Virus record (IMG/VR): IMGVR_UViG_3300037584_002301
Span: 1-23,880 of that record
Length of the DNA stretch: 23,880 nt
Source of the DNA: a virus
Reading direction: 5' to 3' (one strand)
The notes under the pieces were generated by a model. It was not told where the DNA came from and ran no database searches. It worked only from the letters and a program-made list of their open reading frames with translations. The translations under genes and the position numbers were made by a program. Positions within the stretch are counted from its first letter, which is position 1. Every line of letters starts with the position of its first letter. Positions 10,301 through 21,977 of the stretch are shown in pieces.

Positions 10301-11131
10301 ATGGCCGCGGACAAAGGCAAACAGTTTGAATATGCTGTAATGTTAGCTGCTTATGGTAGAATAACTGAGGAGTTGACTGGAGAAGTAAAGTCTACCTTTG
10401 ATACCATTATGAGAAATACTAGTAATGGAACATCTATATCTAATGATGTTATGGCAGCAGCAAGAGAAACTATGGATAGACTTGAACCTAGAAGTAATAA
10501 ATTAGCGTTCTATAAGTCTTTTAGGCAACTTGGTGGTGGAGCAGGTGGAGGAGGAGAACCTAAAACGGATATTCTCTACAAGATGAATGGAACAAAATAT
10601 AGAGTTTCTATGAAGTGGGGAGATAAGTATCAACTATCAAGTGCGGGTATTTCCAAAACTGTAAAGGTTTTAACTGATGTATTAAAAGGTGCTGCTCAAG
10701 AAGGTGGGATGAATACAAATAGTCTTGGTGAGATTGCACTTTGTTTAGAACAAATTGATAATCAACTAGGGACTCTTCCAAAGAAAGGTGAGCAACCTTT
10801 CATGAAACAAAAACTTGCGAGGGCAAATCATTTGAATTTACAATTGCAAGAAATACTTGGATCTAGAAAAAATCCTAAAGCAGCAGAAGCATTTTCTTTC
10901 TTTAAAGATGCTGTTGTAAAAGAGTCTTTGACTGGTGAGTATCTGTTTGGTAAACAGGCAGACGCCACTGCTGAGTATGTATTAAACGAAAAAGAATTGA
11001 GAAAAATAGACGATAAACTTATCAGGGAAGTTTCGGATAAAACTTATGTGAGGTTAAGATTGAAAGGCAGAGGAAAGACTGCGGCAGGTGTAAGACTAAA
11101 TGAACTTGTGGTTACAATAGAACCTAAATAA
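10301..11131 (+). CDS. Conserved-looking phage protein with possible PD-(D/E)XK-type core
   Basis: A 276-residue protein. After a helical N-terminus (KGKQFEYAVMLAAYGRITEE) and a Gly-rich linker (77-85: GQLGGGAGGGG-like), residues 88-105 read KTDILY...YRVSMKW, a layout like the D-x(n)-S-x-K form of nuclease folds such as HpaII-type enzymes (D90, K105). Later VVKESLTGEYLFGKQADATAEYVL (about 207-230) resembles an element I associate with T4-like phage proteins that share this domain. It begins the late block, before internal-protein-like genes. It could be a nuclease or only a structural relative. Nuclease identity is uncertain because the usual acidic residue two before Lys is Ser. Confidence 0.5.
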   Translation: MAADKGKQFEYAVMLAAYGRITEELTGEVKSTFDTIMRNTSNGTSISNDVMAAARETMDRLEPRSNKLAFYKSFRQLGGGAGGGGEPKTDILYKMNGTKYRVSMKWGDKYQLSSAGISKTVKVLTDVLKGAAQEGGMNTNSLGEIALCLEQIDNQLGTLPKKGEQPFMKQKLARANHLNLQLQEILGSRKNPKAAEAFSFFKDAVVKESLTGEYLFGKQADATAEYVLNEKELRKIDDKLIREVSDKTYVRLRLKGRGKTAAGVRLNELVVTIEPK

Positions 11132-11153
11132 TGTATAAGGATTACCAATATCA

Positions 11154-12383
11154 ATGAAAAGTTTCTTTCAGTTTCTGAATGAGGCTCAGTCGCAAGCATC
11201 GATGCAGGCGAAAAAACTGAACCTTAAGAGCGACGGACACGGTGGTTGGCTAGATACCCGTGGAAATTTTGTTGCGACTACTGAAGATGGAAAACTAAAG
11301 TTTGTAGATAAGAAAAAGGCAAAGCAACAGGATGAAAAACCTGCACAAGAAAAAAGATCACAAGCAGAACCTGAAGAAAAGTCTAAGAAACCTGCACCTC
11401 AAGAAACTGATGTAAAGAAAGCAGGAGCAGATGAAGGTGATCAAACTTCTGGAGAATCTACAGAAACTCTTACGGTAGTTTTTGGTAGATTTAATCCACC
11501 AACTGTAGGGCATGGTAAACTTCTTTCTGCAGCGAAAAAGGCATCTGGAGGAGAAGATCTAAAGATATATCCCTCACGTTCACAGGATGCTAAGAAGAAT
11601 CCACTTGATCCTGACATGAAAATATCATATATGAAAAAGATGTTCCCTGAATATGAGGAGAGCATTGTTAATGATGAAGAGATGAGATCTATCTTTAATG
11701 TTCTCACTACTGCAGATGAGCAAGGATATCGTAGTGTTAATATCGTTGTAGGTTCAGATCGTCAAGCAGAGTTTGAAAATCTAGCAACCAAATATAATGG
11801 TGAACTTTATAACTTTGAAGATATTCGTGTTATTTCTGCAGGCGTAAGAGATGCAGATGCTGAGGGTGTAGAGGGAATGTCGGCATCCAAGATGAGAAAG
11901 GCTGTTGTCGATAGTGACTTTGATGCTTTCCGTCGTGGCACTCCTAAGGAACTTGATGATGGAGATACTCAGGCACTCTTTGATGCAGTCCGTGCTGGTA
12001 TGAAAGTTAGGAAGAAGAAAGAAGTTGCAGAGATGTGGGAGATTGCACCAAGATACGATACAAAAGGTTTGCGTGAACAATTTGTAAATGGACTCATTTA
12101 TAATATTGGCGATATTGTAGAAAGTTTACACACAGGATTAGTCGGTAAGATTATTCGCAGAGGAACAAATCATCTTATCTGTGTTACAGAAGAAGAATAT
12201 ATGTTCAAATCTTGGATTCGTGATGTCATGGAATATACTGAGAGAAGAATGGAACGTCGGATGAGAGTTCCTGGCAAACCAAATACTCTTGAAGGGACTG
12301 GTGGATATTTGAAGAATGCCATGGCTGCAACGGGAACAACTAATATTAGAAATTTCATAAATAAGTACAAAGCTAAAAAGTAA
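11154..12383 (+). CDS. Capsid-targeted nucleotidyltransferase (NMNAT-like) protein
   Basis: A 409-residue, three-part protein. Residues 1-10 (MKSFFQFLNE) resemble the T4 internal-protein capsid-targeting sequence MKTYQEFI-E, with an L-N-E/A site suited to the prohead protease gp21. Residues 45-105 are a disordered Lys/Glu/Pro/Gln linker. Residues 106-285 are a cytidylyltransferase-like fold: GRFNPPTVGH (111-120) carries the nucleotide-binding (T/H)xGH motif, SRSQDAKKNPL follows (141-151), and SASKMR (243-248) replaces the usual ISSTxxR. Residues 310-350 (YNIGDIVESLHTGLVGKIIRRGTNH region) look like a KOW/SH3-type barrel. Family members join NMN and ATP to make NAD, or transfer other nucleotides. 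Start: AAGGA upstream at 11139-11143. Confidence 0.7.
   Translation: MKSFFQFLNEAQSQASMQAKKLNLKSDGHGGWLDTRGNFVATTEDGKLKFVDKKKAKQQDEKPAQEKRSQAEPEEKSKKPAPQETDVKKAGADEGDQTSGESTETLTVVFGRFNPPTVGHGKLLSAAKKASGGEDLKIYPSRSQDAKKNPLDPDMKISYMKKMFPEYEESIVNDEEMRSIFNVLTTADEQGYRSVNIVVGSDRQAEFENLATKYNGELYNFEDIRVISAGVRDADAEGVEGMSASKMRKAVVDSDFDAFRRGTPKELDDGDTQALFDAVRAGMKVRKKKEVAEMWEIAPRYDTKGLREQFVNGLIYNIGDIVESLHTGLVGKIIRRGTNHLICVTEEEYMFKSWIRDVMEYTERRMERRMRVPGKPNTLEGTGGYLKNAMAATGTTNIRNFINKYKAKK
12356..12363 (+). promoter_or_regulatory. CATAAATA, possible late promoter before the core-like gene
   Basis: A seven-of-eight match to TATAAATA inside the end of the NMNAT-like gene, 30 bases before ATG 12394; the perfect site at 14828 has nearly the same spacing (32 bases) to its gene. 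The same NATAAATA form precedes 10301. Not distinguishable from chance without expression data. Confidence 0.4.
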
Positions 12384-12393
12384 TAGAATTACC

Positions 12394-13857
12394 ATGTCTA
12401 ATGGAATCGGCAAAAACCCTTTGATTGATATTTCAAAGGTATATCTTCAGCAGATAGCTAATGAAGGGACTATGGACATAAAGGGTTTTGAGATCCCTAA
12501 GAAAGAGCAAGAGGCTGCTGCCAAGAGAGTGAAAGATAAGACTGCCGCTAAGCAAAAAAATATTAGAGGTAATGTTACTGCAGATCAAAAGGCACGTCTT
12601 GAGAAGAAGCGTGGCATGAAACTGGATGATCATCCTCAGTATAAAAAAGAAGAATACGTCACTGAACTCTCTAAAAAGACTTTAGGTTCTTATGTAAAGA
12701 AGGCCTCACAGGATGCCGCAGATAGGAATTTTGATCATGGTGAAAGTGAGAAGCGTCAGTATGATCCAGATGCTGCTGATGAGAAAGAAACTAAGAAACT
12801 GGCCAACAGACAGAAAGGAATTGGTAGAGCTGTAAATCGCCTGACTAAAGAAGGACTTGATCCTGTTGGTAAGGAAGATGGTGATGTGAACAACGACGGC
12901 AAGAAGGATAGCACAGACTCTTATCTGATGAAGCGTCGTAAGGCAATTGGCAATGCGATGAAAAAGAAAATGAAGGAGCAAAGAGAATTTGCAGAGGAGT
13001 CATTGACTGAAGTAATGACTGATGAAATGGATGATAAACCCATTAAAGAGAAGAAAGTAAAAAACAAAATCACCATAAATCCAAAACTGGGAGAGGCAGT
13101 TGAGGAACTGGGTGGAACTTTGATTGAAGAAATCGAAGTTGATGAACTTGATGTTATTGTTGAAACTGTTTATGAAGAACTCATTGGAGAAGGGTTCTCT
13201 GAAGATGAAGTTGAGTATGGCATTGAGACTGCATTAAATACCCTTGACGAGGGTTATTATGATTCTGCGGTAGCATCGTCAAAGGCAGCGGCAGCAAAAA
13301 ATAGAGGAGAAACTCCTAAGAAGTCTATGAAAGATAGGCTAAAGTCTGCTGCTAAGAAAGCGATCGGTGGTACTGCCCGCGCAGTTGGTAAGGCAATGAA
13401 AGCAAAGGCGGCAGTTCAAGCAGCACCAGAAAGGGCGAAATCAAAGATGACATCCATGGCAGATCGCGTCAAGAGAATTGCCAAAGCTGGATATGAATCT
13501 GGTAGAGGGCCTGTTGAAAAAAAGTCTAAAGGCACCTCATACAGGGGTGCGGGCGTAGGACGAAAAGAGAAGATTGGTGAAGAGTCAGTTGTTGAAAATG
13601 TAGCATCTGGTAAAGCAAAAAGAGCAAAAAGAGGTGGTATTTCTCAAAAAGTTGGAGCGGGTGAAATCGTTTCCAATAAAGAAAAGGCAGATGCCTATGC
13701 TAAGAAAAAATCTGCAGACATGGCATCAGATGTAGCAGCAGGAGATGCCGCACATAAAGCAGCTACTGATAAAGGTATGAGTCCTGCTGATGCGATGATG
13801 CGTAAAAAAGCAGCTGAGAGAAAAGCAGCTCGTGAAAGAGCGAGGATGATGAAATGA
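12394..13857 (+). CDS. Prohead core / internal virion-like protein with EF-hand loop
   Basis: A 487-residue, Lys/Ala/Glu-rich protein of mostly helical or disordered sequence. It contains LSKKTLGSYVKKASQDA (about 92-108), a segment I associate with marine phage structural proteins, then DVNNDGKKDSTD (164-175), whose acidic or polar residues 1, 3, 5, 9 and 12 fit a calcium-binding EF-hand/dockerin loop. Several L/I-x-E sites that suit the gp21 protease occur (E206, E234, E266, E286). A basic Ala-rich C-terminal third (KKAIGGTARAVGKAMKAKAA) could bind DNA. This composition fits a scaffold or core protein cut during head maturation. The start is ATG 12394, eight bases beyond the previous stop. 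Exact role unproven. Confidence 0.6.
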   Translation: MSNGIGKNPLIDISKVYLQQIANEGTMDIKGFEIPKKEQEAAAKRVKDKTAAKQKNIRGNVTADQKARLEKKRGMKLDDHPQYKKEEYVTELSKKTLGSYVKKASQDAADRNFDHGESEKRQYDPDAADEKETKKLANRQKGIGRAVNRLTKEGLDPVGKEDGDVNNDGKKDSTDSYLMKRRKAIGNAMKKKMKEQREFAEESLTEVMTDEMDDKPIKEKKVKNKITINPKLGEAVEELGGTLIEEIEVDELDVIVETVYEELIGEGFSEDEVEYGIETALNTLDEGYYDSAVASSKAAAAKNRGETPKKSMKDRLKSAAKKAIGGTARAVGKAMKAKAAVQAAPERAKSKMTSMADRVKRIAKAGYESGRGPVEKKSKGTSYRGAGVGRKEKIGEESVVENVASGKAKRAKRGGISQKVGAGEIVSNKEKADAYAKKKSADMASDVAAGDAAHKAATDKGMSPADAMMRKKAAERKAARERARMMK

Positions 13858-14246
13858 AAACTTTTAAAGAGTTTATTAACTATGGAAGAATCGAAGAAAA
13901 AGCAGTCTCCAAAGCACAACAAAGATTCTTCGGGATGGTTAGAGCGACTCAGAAGGGGGAAATGGAAAACCCCTCACCTGAGGTTTCCAAAGCTGCTTCC
14001 TCCATCAGCAAGTCCGACGTGAAGGATTTTGCTAAGACTAAGCACAAGGGACTTCCAAATAAAAAAGATGTGAAAGAGCAAATGAAAGTCTCTCCTGAAG
14101 ACAAAAAAGAGAAAACGAAAGTCTCTCCTGAAAACAGAAAGTTGATTAATAAAGAAATAATGATGCAGAAAAAGCAGCATATATTGGATAGAATGCGTAT
14201 GCAAATGAAAAAACGTGGTGAACTTCCTATTACTTCAGCAAGATGA
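13854..14246 (+). CDS. DUF3008-type protein with capsid-targeting-like N-terminus
   Basis: A 130-residue protein. The start MKTFKEFINYGRIEEKAV resembles the T4 internal-protein targeting peptide, with I-E-E/K as a possible gp21 cut. Residues 17-68 (SKAQQRFFGMVRATQKGEM...NPSPEV...ISKSDVKDFAKTKHKGLP) match my memory of the DUF3008 family (SKAQQRLFGMV..YQKGE), found in T4-like phages and some bacteria. A short internal duplication (KVSPEDKK and KVSPENRK) follows, then a basic helix-rich tail. It overlaps the core-like gene by four bases (ATGA) and the next gene likewise. Probably a DNA-proximal capsid protein; function of DUF3008 is unknown. Confidence 0.65.
   Translation: MKTFKEFINYGRIEEKAVSKAQQRFFGMVRATQKGEMENPSPEVSKAASSISKSDVKDFAKTKHKGLPNKKDVKEQMKVSPEDKKEKTKVSPENRKLINKEIMMQKKQHILDRMRMQMKKRGELPITSAR
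14082..14132 (+). repeat. Short in-frame direct repeat in the DUF3008-type gene
   Basis: GAAAGTCTCTCCTGAA occurs exactly at 14084-14099 and 14117-14132, 33 bases apart, so it duplicates 11 codons in frame (KVSPE repeated). Probably a recent slippage or duplication in a disordered tail. Confidence 0.8.
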
Positions 14247-14563
14247 AAAAAGAAATTGAGCTTGACGAATACTACGGTATGCCTGGTGGCATGGGATCAT
14301 CCAGAAGTAAAGGTGTGCGTGATGATGAAAAATATCAAAAATCAAAAGAAAGAGTTGATTCTCTTTTAGCTGCTGTTAGAAGAGGAAGAGAAAGAAGAAA
14401 GAAAATGGAAGAAGAGTCTAGTTATAAGTCAAGAGATAAAATTATGAAAAAAGCAAAACCTCTTCATAAACATCTCTATAAAAACCTTCATAAGAAGGAT
14501 ACCTCTGGAGATATTAATGAATCTAAGGATAAAACTCTTAAAGAGTTTTTAGGGAATATATAG
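14243..14563 (+). CDS. 106-residue basic coiled-coil-like protein, unknown function
   Basis: Starts in the upstream stop (ATGA). The product has a Gly/Met-rich turn (YYGMPGGMGSSRSKG, about 9-23), then a long charged helix rich in Arg/Lys/Glu (YQKSKERVDSLLAAVRRGRERRKKMEEE) and a Lys/His/Glu-rich C-terminus ending KTLKEFLGNI. There is no hydrophobic core typical of enzymes. It may be another capsid-interior or DNA-binding component given its neighbours, but no family is recognised. It has no frameshift and shares the local codon pattern. Confidence 0.68.
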   Translation: MKKEIELDEYYGMPGGMGSSRSKGVRDDEKYQKSKERVDSLLAAVRRGRERRKKMEEESSYKSRDKIMKKAKPLHKHLYKNLHKKDTSGDINESKDKTLKEFLGNI

Positions 14564-14584
14564 TAATAGTCATTTTGGTTTATC

Positions 14585-14788
14585 ATGCTTTCATTTCTCC
14601 TTCCCTTAGCATCAAAGGTTATTACTGATGCAGTTGCCAAGATTCCTGAAAATGAGGAACTGGGCGAAAAGTTGATTGATATCTGTTTAGTTATCTTAGG
14701 TAAGGCAGTTAAACTTACTAAAACTGATATGGATGATCAACTCTTAGAAGTTGTTACAAAGGCTATTAAAGCACGCGAAGATGCGTGA
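14585..14788 (+). CDS. 67-residue hydrophobic-helix protein, unknown function
   Basis: The protein begins MLSFLLPLASKVITDAV, a moderately hydrophobic helix, then PENEELGEKLIDICLVILGKAV and a final amphipathic helix. It could be peripheral to the membrane or a small virion component. ATG 14585 lies 21 bases after the previous stop, with no strong Shine-Dalgarno. It is the last gene before the terminator at 14794. Similar short proteins appear, as I recall, in cyanophage genomes near structural genes, but I do not know a role. Confidence 0.65.
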   Translation: MLSFLLPLASKVITDAVAKIPENEELGEKLIDICLVILGKAVKLTKTDMDDQLLEVVTKAIKAREDA

Positions 14789-14793
14789 TTTAT

Positions 14794-14829
14794 AAAAAAA
14801 GCAGACAACAGGTAAGGTCTGCTTTTTTA
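14794..14829 (+). terminator. Rho-independent terminator ending the core/internal-protein block
   Basis: GCAGAC (14801-14806), loop AACAGGTAAG, GTCTGC (14817-14822), flanked by seven A (14794-14800) and six T (14823-14828), so the A/T flanks extend the stem to 12 pairs. A strong terminator, possibly bidirectional; its T-tract runs straight into the late promoter. Confidence 0.88.
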
Positions 14830-14835
14830 TAAATA
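14828..14835 (+). promoter_or_regulatory. T4-type late promoter TATAAATA
   Basis: An exact late octamer, starting on the last T of the terminator, 32 bases before ATG 14868 and with AAAGGG as a ribosome-binding site in between. Late promoters are read by RNA polymerase with gp55, gp33 and the gp45 clamp. Position before a virion-type gene makes this the most convincing late promoter in the window. Confidence 0.8.
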
Positions 14836-14867
14836 TTTCTACGATTAAATTAGAAAGGGTAAAAAGA

Positions 14868-15914
14868 ATGGCACTCTGGGGCATTTCAACAACTACTGAG
14901 ACTGAAACAAATAATTTCGCCATCCCAAAGGATTTAAAATCTGTTGACAGAAATTATACTCCCCATAATTGTTTTGCGGATAATCGTGGTTGGATTTATA
15001 GAAGATATGGTACTACCGAGCAGTCGGGATTATCGACAACCTACTATGATGAGGTTCTTGTACCTGTAGCAGGTTTGAATACGGCTGGTAGATATGGTAG
15101 TGTTGATCTGGGTGCCACCGGACTCGGAACTGCTACTATGACAGCAGTATTCTTTGAAGATCCAAACAAAGATTCTTCGTTTACAGTTAGTGGTGGTAGC
15201 ACAACAGGTGTTACAGCCGGAACTTCAGTCAATGTTCATGTCTGTTACAACGAAAACGTATTTGTAAGTGCTGGTGCAACAGTAAAAGTTCGTGTATTTG
15301 ATGCTAATGATGCTAATGAGAGCACCAGCATCATTGGATATGCTGCTTCTGTTGGTGCTGCTAACTACAATGCAGAACTTCCTGTCTTCTCTAATGAGAA
15401 TGGACAAGAAACAATTACAAACTTTAATGGGCAAATTACAAACAGAGTATCATTTGCTTTAACTGCCCCAGCTGCTGTCTTGAACGCTAGTGTTCCATTC
15501 AACATCACTACTGTCGCTGCTGGTAATGCCATCGGTATTGGATCAACGGTTATCTACATCACTGATCTGACTAATGTTTCGACTGCAAGTTCTGTAAGCA
15601 TTACTTCTGTTGGTGGTACTATCACTAAGGCTGCTGTTGTTGCTGTTGGCGATACCTCTATCACCGTTGGTACTAGTGCTACAACCGCTGGATTTGTATC
15701 CATCGCTGCTGGTACTGCTGTAACGTTTACCAACCATTCTGCATCCAGTAAGATGTTCATCGATCTTCCAGCAAATGTTGTTGGAACAATCACTGACTTC
15801 TCTGGTGGTGGTGCTGCATTCAAGACGATAGGTTCTCAAATCTTCAACGTTGGTGGTGCTGGAACCACTGGATCCGTAGGACTCGGAACCACAACAATTT
15901 CTGTCTTTGCATGA
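14868..15914 (+). CDS. Virion structural protein, Gly/Thr/Val-rich
   Basis: A 348-residue protein beginning MALWGISTTTETETNNFAIP, with an N-terminal conserved part (to about 75, CFADNRGWIYRRYGTTEQSG) and a long beta-strand-like Gly/Thr/Ser/Val/Ala-rich region with short repeated strand patterns (e.g. GSTVIYITDL, GDTSITVGTS). The MALWG opening recurs in cyanophage virion proteins that I recall. The low charge, lack of Cys pairs and beta-rich composition fit a surface or tail/head decoration protein. It is preceded by a perfect late promoter and terminator, so it starts a new late unit. Specific location in the virion is not known. Confidence 0.7.
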   Translation: MALWGISTTTETETNNFAIPKDLKSVDRNYTPHNCFADNRGWIYRRYGTTEQSGLSTTYYDEVLVPVAGLNTAGRYGSVDLGATGLGTATMTAVFFEDPNKDSSFTVSGGSTTGVTAGTSVNVHVCYNENVFVSAGATVKVRVFDANDANESTSIIGYAASVGAANYNAELPVFSNENGQETITNFNGQITNRVSFALTAPAAVLNASVPFNITTVAAGNAIGIGSTVIYITDLTNVSTASSVSITSVGGTITKAAVVAVGDTSITVGTSATTAGFVSIAAGTAVTFTNHSASSKMFIDLPANVVGTITDFSGGGAAFKTIGSQIFNVGGAGTTGSVGLGTTTISVFA

Positions 15915-15917
15915 TAT

Positions 15918-16310
15918 ATGATTTTTAGTGAATTGAATGGAGATAACTTTCTCCTCTTTGCCATTAAACACTATGAGAATCCTCAGGCAGTAACAAAGGA
16001 AGATTTTGACAAAGATTTAAATCATTTTAAATATATAAAGAGACTCTTGAAAAGATATAGGAATAATGGTGAGCTAAAAACTCACCTTCTCCTCAATCAT
16101 TTCATCATACTTTATAATATTTTTGGAGAAGCAACTACACCAATGTTGTTCTTCAAAATAGAAGAAGAACTTTGGGCTTCGATGAAATCTTTTATTGTAT
16201 TTTTAAATAAACTCCCTAGTTACCCAAAATGTTATGTTCATGATATTGATGCAGACGAATATTGTCTTTCAGAACTAAACAGGATCTATAATGAAAAAGG
16301 AAAATCTTGA
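15918..16310 (+). CDS. Conserved T4-like small protein, unknown function
   Basis: A 130-residue helical protein: NFLLFAIKHYENPQAVTKEDFDKDLNHFKYIKRLLKRY, then LLLNHFIILYNIFGEATTPMLFFKIEEELW. I recall a family in T4-like phages with the same NNP/EDL.R.KYIKRL...LNH.I.LYNVFG pattern, also of unknown function. It has only a three-base gap from the structural gene and overlaps the next by 20 bases, suggesting a shared late transcript. All-alpha fold likely; no catalytic motif is visible. Confidence 0.75.
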   Translation: MIFSELNGDNFLLFAIKHYENPQAVTKEDFDKDLNHFKYIKRLLKRYRNNGELKTHLLLNHFIILYNIFGEATTPMLFFKIEEELWASMKSFIVFLNKLPSYPKCYVHDIDADEYCLSELNRIYNEKGKS

Positions 16311-16524
16311 CAAGATAATTGACAGAGTTAGGGCACATCTTTATGAAGATGTTCCGACGATGAATACTGCCAGCACAGATGGTAAACCAGGATTTTCTAG
16401 TAAAGCAGATGCGGCAGGCCCAACCGCAGGTTTTGATGTTCCTCTAAAGGGAAAGAGAAAGAAATATATTTACGTTAAGGGTGTAAGAAAATTGTGGAGT
16501 CCCAAAAATGGACGAGCAAGTTAA
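16291..16524 (+). CDS. 77-residue phage protein, unknown function
   Basis: Starts 20 bases inside the preceding gene. Residues 1-20 form a basic helix (LDKIIDRVRAHLYEDV), followed by a Gly/Ser/Ala-rich stretch (STDGKPGFSSKADAAGPTAGFD) and a basic end KGKRKKYIYVKGVRKLW. The GPTAG...RKKY.Y.KG.RK.W pattern recurs, as far as I recall, in small T4-like phage proteins near the structural genes. Small, basic and probably structural or DNA-associated. Its end overlaps the next gene by 17 bases. Confidence 0.7.
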   Translation: MKKENLDKIIDRVRAHLYEDVPTMNTASTDGKPGFSSKADAAGPTAGFDVPLKGKRKKYIYVKGVRKLWSPKNGRAS

Positions 16525-21391: not shown

Positions 21392-21553
21392 ATGCCTAAA
21401 AATCAACTAAAAAAAGACGAGTTGAAAAACCGTATACTCAAATTAAAAAATGATGTATACAATGAACCTGATACCGTTTGGCAGGGGGATCGAGATATGG
21501 CACATAAATATCTCGATAAGGTATTAAACATTATTGATGAGTATAGGTATTGA
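21392..21553 (+). CDS. 53-residue protein after nrdB, unknown function
   Basis: The ATG lies directly after an eight-pair hairpin and lacks a separate Shine-Dalgarno. The product is basic at the N-terminus (MPKNQLKKDELKNRILKLKN), with YNEPDTVWQGDRDMAHKYLDKVLNIIDE as a short acidic, helical second half. Length, ORF position and 17-base overlap with the next gene support it. No family recognised; proximity to nrdB does not itself indicate a role in nucleotide metabolism. Confidence 0.62.
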   Translation: MPKNQLKKDELKNRILKLKNDVYNEPDTVWQGDRDMAHKYLDKVLNIIDEYRY

Positions 21554-21977
21554 TTATGAAAACCCATGGATCTATAATGGCACCCCTTTTGATGGGAGTC
21601 TTATTGGCGACAACTACGGGTTTGTTTATAACATTACCAATCTCACAAACCAACGACAATACATTGGGCGAAAGTATTTTTGGCAGCATCGAACACCAAA
21701 AGGAAAGAAACGCAAAGTAAAATCAGAATCAGATTGGAAAAAGTATTATGGGTCTTGTCCAGAACTTAAAAAAGACATTGAGCTCTTGGGGCGACAGAAT
21801 TTTAGTAGAACTATCCTGTCATTACATAAAACACCTGGCAAAACAAACTTTGAAGAAACCCGACAACTCTTCGCCCATGGGGTTCTCACTGAATCCCTTG
21901 ACACGGGAGGACCTGCCTACTACAATAGTAACATCCTCAGCAGGTACTTCCGAAAAGACTATTATGATGGAGACTGA
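21537..21977 (+). CDS. GIY-YIG-like endonuclease
   Basis: A 146-residue protein with the GIY-YIG signature in modified form: GFVY (28-31), ten residues, YIG (42-44), followed by a basic region RTPKGKKRKVKSES, WKKYYGSCPELKKDI, a likely metal-binding glutamate at 106 or 107 (NFEETRQL) and an Asn near 130 (YYN). T4-like phages often carry such free-standing homing or segment endonucleases next to conserved genes such as nrdB. ATG 21537 is chosen over TTG 21534. Whether it cuts a site in related phages cannot be shown here. Confidence 0.72.
   Translation: MSIGIDYENPWIYNGTPFDGSLIGDNYGFVYNITNLTNQRQYIGRKYFWQHRTPKGKKRKVKSESDWKKYYGSCPELKKDIELLGRQNFSRTILSLHKTPGKTNFEETRQLFAHGVLTESLDTGGPAYYNSNILSRYFRKDYYDGD

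What the first reader, a model, noticed from the sequence alone, without database searches (positions are those of the whole stretch)
11154..12383. NMNAT-like nucleotidyltransferase carrying a capsid-targeting peptide
The start MKSFFQFLNE/A closely follows the T4 internal-protein targeting peptide and a gp21 cut site; the middle has the GRFNPPTVGH nucleotidyltransferase motif; the end is a KOW/SH3-like domain. T4 internal proteins are packed and injected with DNA, where IPI blocks a host restriction enzyme. A packaged NAD- or nucleotide-making enzyme could counter NAD-depleting host defence or act on DNA ends at the moment of entry. Motifs are seen; packaging and role are inference.
Basis: partly seen in the sequence, partly recalled or inferred. 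Interest (0 to 1): 0.66.

Follow-up and report, generated by a model that had tools for sequence, protein, structure and literature searches.

The report
Capsid-addressed nucleotidyltransferase of marine cyanophages
This marine virus gene encodes a nucleotide-joining enzyme that starts with a short address for packing proteins into the virus head; relatives have been found in purified virus particles, so it is probably injected into the host with the DNA, but what it makes there is still unknown.

Summary
Window 11154-12383 encodes a 409-aa protein: a capsid-targeting peptide (MKSFFQFLNE/A), a small DGHGGW module, a low-confidence charged linker, a HIGH-superfamily nucleotidyltransferase (NTase), and a small beta-rich C-terminal domain. 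The window is a 23.9-kb cyanophage (Kyanoviridae) fragment. The address is conserved in 92 of 94 non-redundant relatives, at the residues that matter in T4 IPIII (4 and 7 for targeting, 8 and 10 for cleavage), and resembles the probable cut sites in related phages' own gp23. It associates with virion content: in S-CREM2 all five proteins starting with such a peptide were found in virions by mass spectrometry. Four orthologues with the peptide (S-SM1, S-SCSM1, S-CREM2, S-SZBM1) are published virion proteins. Packaging is therefore well supported, but virion presence and the NMNAT-injection idea are already published; the address rule was not found in the open papers searched. The NAD role is unproven: curated NMNAT cut-offs are missed by far, the fold ties with phosphopantetheine adenylyltransferase, and no NAMPT gene exists in nine related phages. 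The gene lies in a virion-protein cassette beside a gene predicted to fold like restriction enzymes MspI and HinP1I. Verdict: a real, probably packaged internal-protein enzyme; substrate open.

The parts
11137..11141 (+). Probable ribosome binding site (AAGGA), 12 nt before the ATG
   Evidence: sequence read directly
11154..12383 (+). Whole gene: 409-aa capsid-addressed HIGH-type nucleotidyltransferase (T4-GC190 / PHROG_395 family)
11154..11183 (+). Capsid-targeting peptide MKSFFQFLNE; predicted gp21-type cut between E10 and A11 (11183/11184)
   Evidence: conserved in 92/94 relatives; matches T4 IPII/IPIII; gp23 sites of related phages
11193..11309 (+). Small N-terminal module with DGHGGW motif (residues about 14-52), helix plus beta hairpin, pLDDT about 90; found also in the S-CREM2 virion kinase gp14 (twice, by alignment) and in virion protein gp12
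11316..11459 (+). Variable charged linker (residues 55-102), low pLDDT
11460..12023 (+). HIGH-superfamily nucleotidyltransferase domain (residues 103-290)
   Evidence: AF2 pLDDT above 90 over most of it; PPAT Z 13.9, NadD/NadM Z about 13
11484..11513 (+). Catalytic motif GRFNPPTVGH (residues 111-120)
   Evidence: R112, N114, P115, P116, G119 and H120 invariant in 82 sequences
11880..11897 (+). Second nucleotide-binding motif SASKMR (residues 243-248), the SxTxxR position of the superfamily
   Evidence: S243, S245 and R248 invariant
12108..12233 (+). C-terminal beta domain (residues about 319-360), SH3/KOW-like by strand pattern; occurs as a separate 91-aa protein in S-PM2
   Evidence: phrog_4808 match
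10301..11131 (+). Upstream neighbour, 276 aa: predicted PD-(D/E)XK nuclease of MspI/HinP1I type (E10, D90, S103xK105, Q111); distant relatives carry capsid-targeting starts
   Evidence: AF2 pLDDT 90; MspI Z 9.4, HinP1I Z 8.9
12394..13857 (+). Downstream neighbour: basic internal-protein-like ORF with a DVNNDGKKDSTDSYL (dockerin-like) motif; positional counterparts detected in virions of S-SCSM1 (ORF92) and S-SZBM1 (_139)
13854..14246 (+). DUF3008 protein starting MKTFKEFI, like T4 IPI's MKTFKEF; S-SCSM1 ORF93 counterpart is labelled virion protein
14868..15914 (+). Virion (tail-fibre-like) protein; S-SCSM1 ORF95 counterpart is labelled virion protein; TATAAATA at 14828
16291..16524 (+). Small protein that resembles the mature gp23 N-terminal arm; S-SCSM1 ORF97 and S-CREM2 gp160 counterparts are virion proteins

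Best explanation
It is an internal head protein of a T4-like cyanophage whose cargo is a HIGH-superfamily nucleotidyltransferase. The first ten residues bind the scaffold core of the prohead and carry the enzyme inside (inferred from T4). The prohead protease gp21 then cuts after E10 (inferred), leaving a mature enzyme beginning at Ala11 in the head. On infection it is ejected with the DNA (inferred from T4 internal proteins) and transfers a nucleotidyl group to a small phosphorylated substrate in the first minutes (class inferred from fold and motifs). NMN or NaMN is the single most likely substrate, but not more likely than all others together. Shown here: fold, conserved catalytic motifs, conserved address, the association of the address with virion content, and the gene's place in a virion-protein cassette. 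Shown by others: orthologues in purified virions.
For: Address conserved in 92/94 non-redundant relatives: K2 92, F4 87, F7 90, L/I/F8 90, E10 89, A11 81 of 94, while positions 3, 5, 6 and 9 vary. In T4 IPIII residues 4 and 7 drive targeting, 8 and 10 cleavage (PMC9026906). Probable gp23 cut sites of related phages: S-SCSM1 SFLAE/APT, S-CREM2 LLTE/APT, S-SZBM1 ILTE/AAPT. In the whole S-CREM2 genome exactly five ORFs start with a CTS-like peptide (gp6 SAM hydrolase/lyase, gp13, gp14 kinase, gp136, gp154 NTase) and all five are among its 52 MS-detected virion proteins (P = 6.5e-4). Over three genomes 7 of 11 hits are virion proteins against about 18% of genes (P = 9e-4). NTase orthologues found in virions: S-SM1 (PMC3037559; SSM1_190 is T4-GC190), S-SCSM1 ORF91, 66% identical (PMC9602691), S-CREM2 gp154 (PMC10665884), S-SZBM1_140 (PMC9146016). 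S-PM2's orthologue has no CTS (fused behind part of DUF6267) and was not detected in S-PM2 virions. In S-SCSM1, 6 of 8 genes around ORF91 are labelled virion proteins (P = 3.5e-4). Fold: Z 12.5-13.9 to PPAT, NadD and NadM.
Against: No mature N-terminus has been measured. Published virion peptide counts are low (3 unique peptides in S-CREM2, 2 in S-SZBM1), and the authors allow carry-over of abundant proteins. Of the pattern hits not detected in virions, two (S-SZBM1_191, S-SCSM1 ORF30) form one small-protein family and one more is S-SZBM1_192; without the NTases the pooled association is weak (P = 0.036). S-PM2's negative is weak, since seven T4-type structural proteins were missed there too. 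Substrate unknown. No activity shown for any member in the papers read.
Confidence: 0.78

Rival explanations
1. The packaged enzyme is a true NMN/NaMN adenylyltransferase that lifts NAD at the start of infection, for metabolism or against NAD-depleting defences.
For: GR(F)xP signature with invariant R112 as in NadM (alignment to 2qjt and MJ0541); most members match NMNAT models above others (TIGR00482 in 13/15, NadR model in 11/15); NadD/NadM among the best folds.
Against: Member 1 scores 16.6 vs 341 bits (NadR) and 14.7 vs 112 (NadD) against curated cut-offs. PPAT ties or leads in fold (Z 13.9). No NAPRTase/NAMPT in nine related phages while controls ring, so no known phage NAD-rebuilding pair. 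Host cells have their own NMNAT (general knowledge).
Confidence: 0.35
2. The enzyme acts with the DUF6267 protein in nucleic-acid end processing: DUF6267 looks like a KxDG ligase, and the NTase feeds or regenerates its cofactor, or adenylylates an intermediate.
For: DUF6267 is present in 11 of 11 phages tested and in none of 14 control genomes. It lies next to the NTase in seven of them, its C-terminal half is fused to the NTase in S-PM2, and PHROG_455 joins both. Invariant KWDGAP, GD and EG.V motifs resemble ligase motifs I, III and IV. HTVC008M adds a P-loop kinase of the Zeta_toxin/AAA_33 type next to the NTase.
Against: Profile comparison of DUF6267 with T4 RNA ligase 2 and T4 DNA ligase is not significant and no PDB ligase is found by sequence. 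In Bellamy, S-SCSM1, P-SSM2 and S-CREM2 DUF6267 lies elsewhere in the genome. It is not in this window's cassette.
Confidence: 0.2
3. The enzyme makes an activated sugar or another group-transfer metabolite (cytidylyl- or phosphosugar-type NTase), as proposed for some cyanophage HIGH NTases.
For: A comparative study of jumbo phages assigns some cyanophage HIGH NTases to NDP-sugar synthesis (PMC7824862); S-SZBM1 authors suggest glycerol-3-phosphate cytidylyltransferase (PMC9146016).
Against: The gene sits in a virion-protein cassette, not among sugar genes; the GR(F)xP start differs from the GTFD start of glycerol-3-phosphate cytidylyltransferase (recall).
Confidence: 0.12
4. The protein is a highly expressed cytoplasmic enzyme that only contaminates virion preparations; the N-terminal similarity to the CTS is not functional.
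For: Authors of S-SCSM1 and S-CREM2 raise this caveat; peptide counts are low.
Against: Detected independently in at least four phages; address residues conserved exactly at the T4 functional positions while neighbouring positions vary; CTS start associates with virion detection; jumbo-phage relatives lack the peptide.
Confidence: 0.08

Closest known systems
Virion-associated NMNAT/cytidylyltransferase of cyanophages (T4-GC190; S-SCSM1 ORF91, S-SM1 SSM1_190, S-CREM2 gp154, S-SZBM1_140)
   Same: Orthologues: same domain, same place upstream of primase and nrd genes in most, CTS-like start, found in virions by published MS
   Different: In the passages read those papers name no targeting peptide or cut site; the window protein is from an uncultured phage without proteomics
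T4 internal proteins IPI, IPII, IPIII (CTS cargo cut by gp21)
   Same: 10-residue N-terminal address with aromatic residues at 4 and 7 and E at 10 followed by A
   Different: T4 IPs are small basic proteins (IPI inhibits a restriction enzyme); here the cargo is an enzyme. No homology in the mature part was seen
T4 Alt (packaged, injected ADP-ribosyltransferase)
   Same: An enzyme carried in the head and ejected to act at once (as reviewed in PMC9026906)
   Different: Unrelated enzyme class
NMNAT families NadM, NadR, NadD and PPAT (CoaD)
   Same: HIGH-superfamily fold; T/HxGH and SxTxxR-type motifs
   Different: About 10-16% identity, below curated family cut-offs; substrate unknown
Stand-alone jumbo-phage cytidyltransferases (Escherichia phage UB, Erwinia phage Kaldavass, Xanthomonas phage XaC1, Pseudomonas phage Ettore)
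   Same: Homologous NTase domain (31-37% identity) with the same invariant residues
   Different: About 177-190 aa, no address, no C-terminal beta domain

Membership tests
T4-type CTS internal head protein | N-terminal address of about 10 residues with targeting residues at 4 and 7 | tested here: met
   F4 and F7 in the window protein; conserved in 87 and 90 of 94 relatives; T4 control sequences; functional positions from PMC9026906
T4-type CTS internal head protein | Prohead-protease site (hydrophobic at 8, E at 10) matching the phage's own gp23 site | tested here: met
   FLNE/A; gp23 sites of related phages FLAE/A, LLTE/A, ILTE/A. Sequence-level only; the window phage's own gp23 is not in the fragment
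T4-type CTS internal head protein | Protein present in mature virions | not testable with these tools
   Not measured for this phage; four orthologues detected by published MS
T4-type CTS internal head protein | Mature N-terminus at Ala11 and ejection into the host | not testable with these tools
   Needs terminal proteomics and delivery assays
HIGH-superfamily nucleotidyltransferase | T/HxGH motif and SxTxxR-type motif | tested here: met
   TVGH and SASKMR; T117 nearly invariant, G119, H120, S243, S245 and R248 invariant in 82 sequences
HIGH-superfamily nucleotidyltransferase | Rossmann-like NTase fold | tested here: met
   AF2 pLDDT above 90 over most of the domain; Z 12.5-13.9 over about 150-165 residues
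NMN/NaMN adenylyltransferase (NMNAT) | Score above curated NMNAT family cut-off | tested here: not met
   TIGR01526 16.6 vs 341.15 bits, TIGR00482 14.7 vs 112.45 bits
NMN/NaMN adenylyltransferase (NMNAT) | Fold closer to NMNAT than to other HIGH enzymes | tested here: inconclusive
   PPAT Z 13.9 and NMNAT Z about 13 are tied; Foldseek ranks NadD first
NMN/NaMN adenylyltransferase (NMNAT) | Makes NAD or NaAD from NMN or NaMN and ATP | not testable with these tools
   No assay reported in the papers read for any member
Phage NAD-rebuilding pathway (NAMPT plus NMNAT) | NAMPT/NAPRTase encoded with the NMNAT | tested here: not met
   PF04095 absent from nine related complete phage genomes, controls positive; the window itself is a fragment
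KOW/SH3-like C-terminal domain | Small five-strand barrel, family match | tested here: inconclusive
   Five strands at about 321-360; no Pfam KOW or SH3 match; this part was barely covered by the fold search

The most novel reading that the evidence does not exclude
Marine T4-like phages share a sequence-readable address code for an injected enzyme kit. This NTase, a restriction-enzyme-like nuclease, a kinase and a SAM-cleaving enzyme are loaded through the same N-terminal peptide, often with a DGHGGW adaptor module, and the NTase with its DUF6267 partner works on nucleic-acid ends or their cofactor at entry rather than simply raising NAD.
Probability: 0.2. Interest if true: 0.75.

Novelty: new member of a known kind. 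Interest (0 to 1): 0.5.

Why it matters
Mass spectrometry has repeatedly found this enzyme in cyanophage particles, but contamination could not be excluded and no packing signal was named in the papers read. A conserved T4-like address that associates with virion detection gives the missing reason and a rule readable from sequence: it picks out which proteins marine cyanophages may carry into their hosts, including a kinase and a SAM-cleaving enzyme. The rule is directly testable by terminal proteomics and by deleting ten residues. If the NTase acts at entry it would be one of few packaged metabolic or nucleic-acid enzymes known in the phages of the ocean's main photosynthesizers.

Tried and rejected
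1) NMNAT as a proven assignment: rejected, see membership test. 2) NAD-rebuilding pair: PF04095 absent. 3) DUF6267 as an established ligase: motif resemblance only; hhalign to T4 RNA ligase 2 and DNA ligase not significant and no PDB match by sequence. 4) T4 late promoter TATAAATA: two in the window, none before this gene, no more than chance. 5) A single-sequence PDB search with the protein gave nothing. 7) The S-CBWM1 'NMNAT' (gp39), cited in the literature as a virion relative, is only about 20% identical, has no address, and was left out of the family alignment. 8) The first S-SM1 region request exceeded the size limit. 9) No DUF6267 paper and no paper linking 'capsid targeting sequence' to a cyanophage protein was found in the open library; subscription papers are not covered.

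Full report
What was claimed.

Setting. The window is a 23,880-base IMG/VR virus record. Its genes and order match cyanophages of the family Kyanoviridae: Synechococcus phages Bellamy (84% identity for this protein), S-SM2 (81%) and S-SCSM1 (66%). The protein family is common: 532 of 50,697 phage records hold a relative, mostly cyanophages. It is T4-GC190, described as a core protein of cyanophages (PMC3037559).

The observation. The ORF, start codon and ribosome site are in order. AF2 gives well-supported domains: an N-terminal module (about 14-52), the NTase (103-290, mostly pLDDT above 90) and a beta-rich C-terminal domain (about 321-360), joined by low-confidence linkers. The catalytic motifs are invariant in 82 sequences, and R, GH, S and R of the motifs also in the distant jumbo-phage homologues.

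The address. In 94 non-redundant relatives whose NTase and linker have diverged (down to 39% identity overall), the first eleven residues stay M-K-x-F-x-x-F-[LIF]-x-E-A. The conserved positions are those shown by mutation in T4 IPIII to direct targeting (4 and 7) and cleavage (8 and 10) (PMC9026906). T4 IPII and IPIII read MKTYQEFIAEA. The probable gp23 cut sites of related phages have the same form, FLAE/A, LLTE/A and ILTE/A. By residue shuffling the pattern is expected in about 0.09 of 250 genes.

Does the address associate with packaging? S-CREM2 has 52 virion proteins by mass spectrometry (PMC10665884). A scan of its whole genome for ORFs starting with the pattern gives five: gp6 (SAM hydrolase; Pfam S-AdoMet_lyase), gp13, gp14 (kinase), gp136 and gp154 (this NTase). 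All five are in the virion list (hypergeometric P = 6.5e-4). Pooled with S-SCSM1 and S-SZBM1, 7 of 11 pattern hits are virion proteins (P = 9e-4). The hits not counted as virion proteins include a small protein family (MKSFKSFLSES / MKTFKQFMSES), a second S-SZBM1 gene, and a hit inside the recombinase gene that is probably not a gene. Without the NTases the association weakens to P = 0.036, so the rule needs more genomes. In S-PM2 the NTase is fused behind part of DUF6267, has no address, and was not detected in virions, although that study missed several structural proteins too.

Neighbourhood. In S-SCSM1 the record labels ORFs 89, 90, 91, 92, 93, 95 and 97 as virion proteins, an island between replication genes (6 of 8 flanking genes, P = 3.5e-4). 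S-SZBM1_139 next to the NTase and S-CREM2 gp155, gp156 and gp160 near it are virion proteins as well. The window cassette 10301-16524 has a similar order. Its upstream gene (10301-11131) is a confident AF2 model (pLDDT 90) whose best structural matches are the restriction enzymes MspI (Z 9.4, 192 residues) and HinP1I (Z 8.9, 179 residues), with HhaI next at 6.0. Foldseek alone gave only weak hits. The residues D90, S103, K105 and G107 are invariant and E10 and Q111 nearly so in 35 sequences, a PD-(D/E)XK-like pattern. Distant relatives of this neighbour begin with targeting peptides such as MQSFNQFLTEA and MRQFKSFLSEG. Other phages have different nuclease-like proteins in the same slot by motif (S-SCSM1 ORF90, Bellamy 169, P-SSM2 192), which is inference from sequence only.

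Enzyme identity. The fold is HIGH-superfamily with PPAT and NMNAT tied. NCBIfam models for NMNAT match most members but far below cut-off. The profile aligns best, weakly, to MJ0951 (a HIGH-NTase protein) and then, leaving aside spurious S-layer hits, to NadM-type NMNATs, sharing the GR(F/M)xP signature. No NAPRTase/NAMPT gene exists in nine related complete phage genomes. NMNAT remains the best single guess at about 0.35.

DUF6267. This family occurs in all 11 phages tested and none of the 14 control genomes. It is adjacent to the NTase in seven, fused in part in S-PM2, and joined in PHROG_455. Its invariant KWDGAP and EG.V motifs recall ligases, but profile comparison does not confirm this. 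A functional link is likely; its nature is open.

What is known. Virion presence of orthologues and the idea of an injected NMNAT are published (PMC3037559, PMC9602691, PMC10665884, PMC9146016). The targeting peptide and its association with virion content were not found in the open library.

Verdict. Observation confirmed. Packaging well supported, cleavage plausible, NAD role unproven. A new member of the known kind 'T4-like internal head protein with enzyme cargo', of moderate interest because the address makes cyanophage cargo predictable and testable.

Noticed in passing
window 10301-11131: Predicted restriction-endonuclease-like nuclease (MspI Z 9.4, HinP1I Z 8.9) in a virion-protein cassette; distant relatives carry capsid-targeting starts, suggesting injected nucleases.
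   Followed up: partly
window 16291-16524: Small protein resembling the mature N-terminal arm of gp23 (GF...GPTAGFD); counterparts are MS-detected virion proteins in S-SCSM1 (ORF97) and S-CREM2 (gp160); PHROG major-head-protein match 3.6e-5 here and 4.7e-12 for S-SCSM1 ORF97.
   Followed up: partly
L268:4205-9347 (S-CREM2 gp12, gp14): The DGHGGW module of the NTase recurs in the virion kinase gp14 (twice by alignment) and in virion protein gp12, annotated as Cas9 but without any Pfam match; a possible cargo adaptor.
   Followed up: partly
window 13854-14246: DUF3008 protein starts MKTFKEFI, like T4 IPI's MKTFKEF; S-SCSM1 ORF93 instead ends in RTFKEFLEYIE, so the motif may sit at either end.
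   Followed up: no
L083:24781-24829 (Bellamy gene 170): The deposited start of Bellamy's orthologue lies 16 codons downstream of the conserved MKSLFQFLNEA start, so the annotation cuts off the address.
   Followed up: yes
window 21534-21977: Homologue of a gene annotated 'NAD synthetase' in Bellamy is a SegE-type GIY-YIG endonuclease (Pfam 8.5e-53); the NAD synthetase name looks wrong.
   Followed up: partly
L087:11513-12226 (S-CREM2 gp156): A virion protein next to the NTase carries a Pol-beta-type nucleotidyltransferase motif (Pfam NTP_transf_2, 21.4 vs cut-off 21 bits).
   Followed up: partly
L097:2797-3459 (HTVC008M gp129): P-loop kinase of Zeta_toxin/AAA_33 type directly upstream of the NTase in a Pelagibacter phage, with DUF6267 and a nuclease-like gene nearby.
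   Followed up: no
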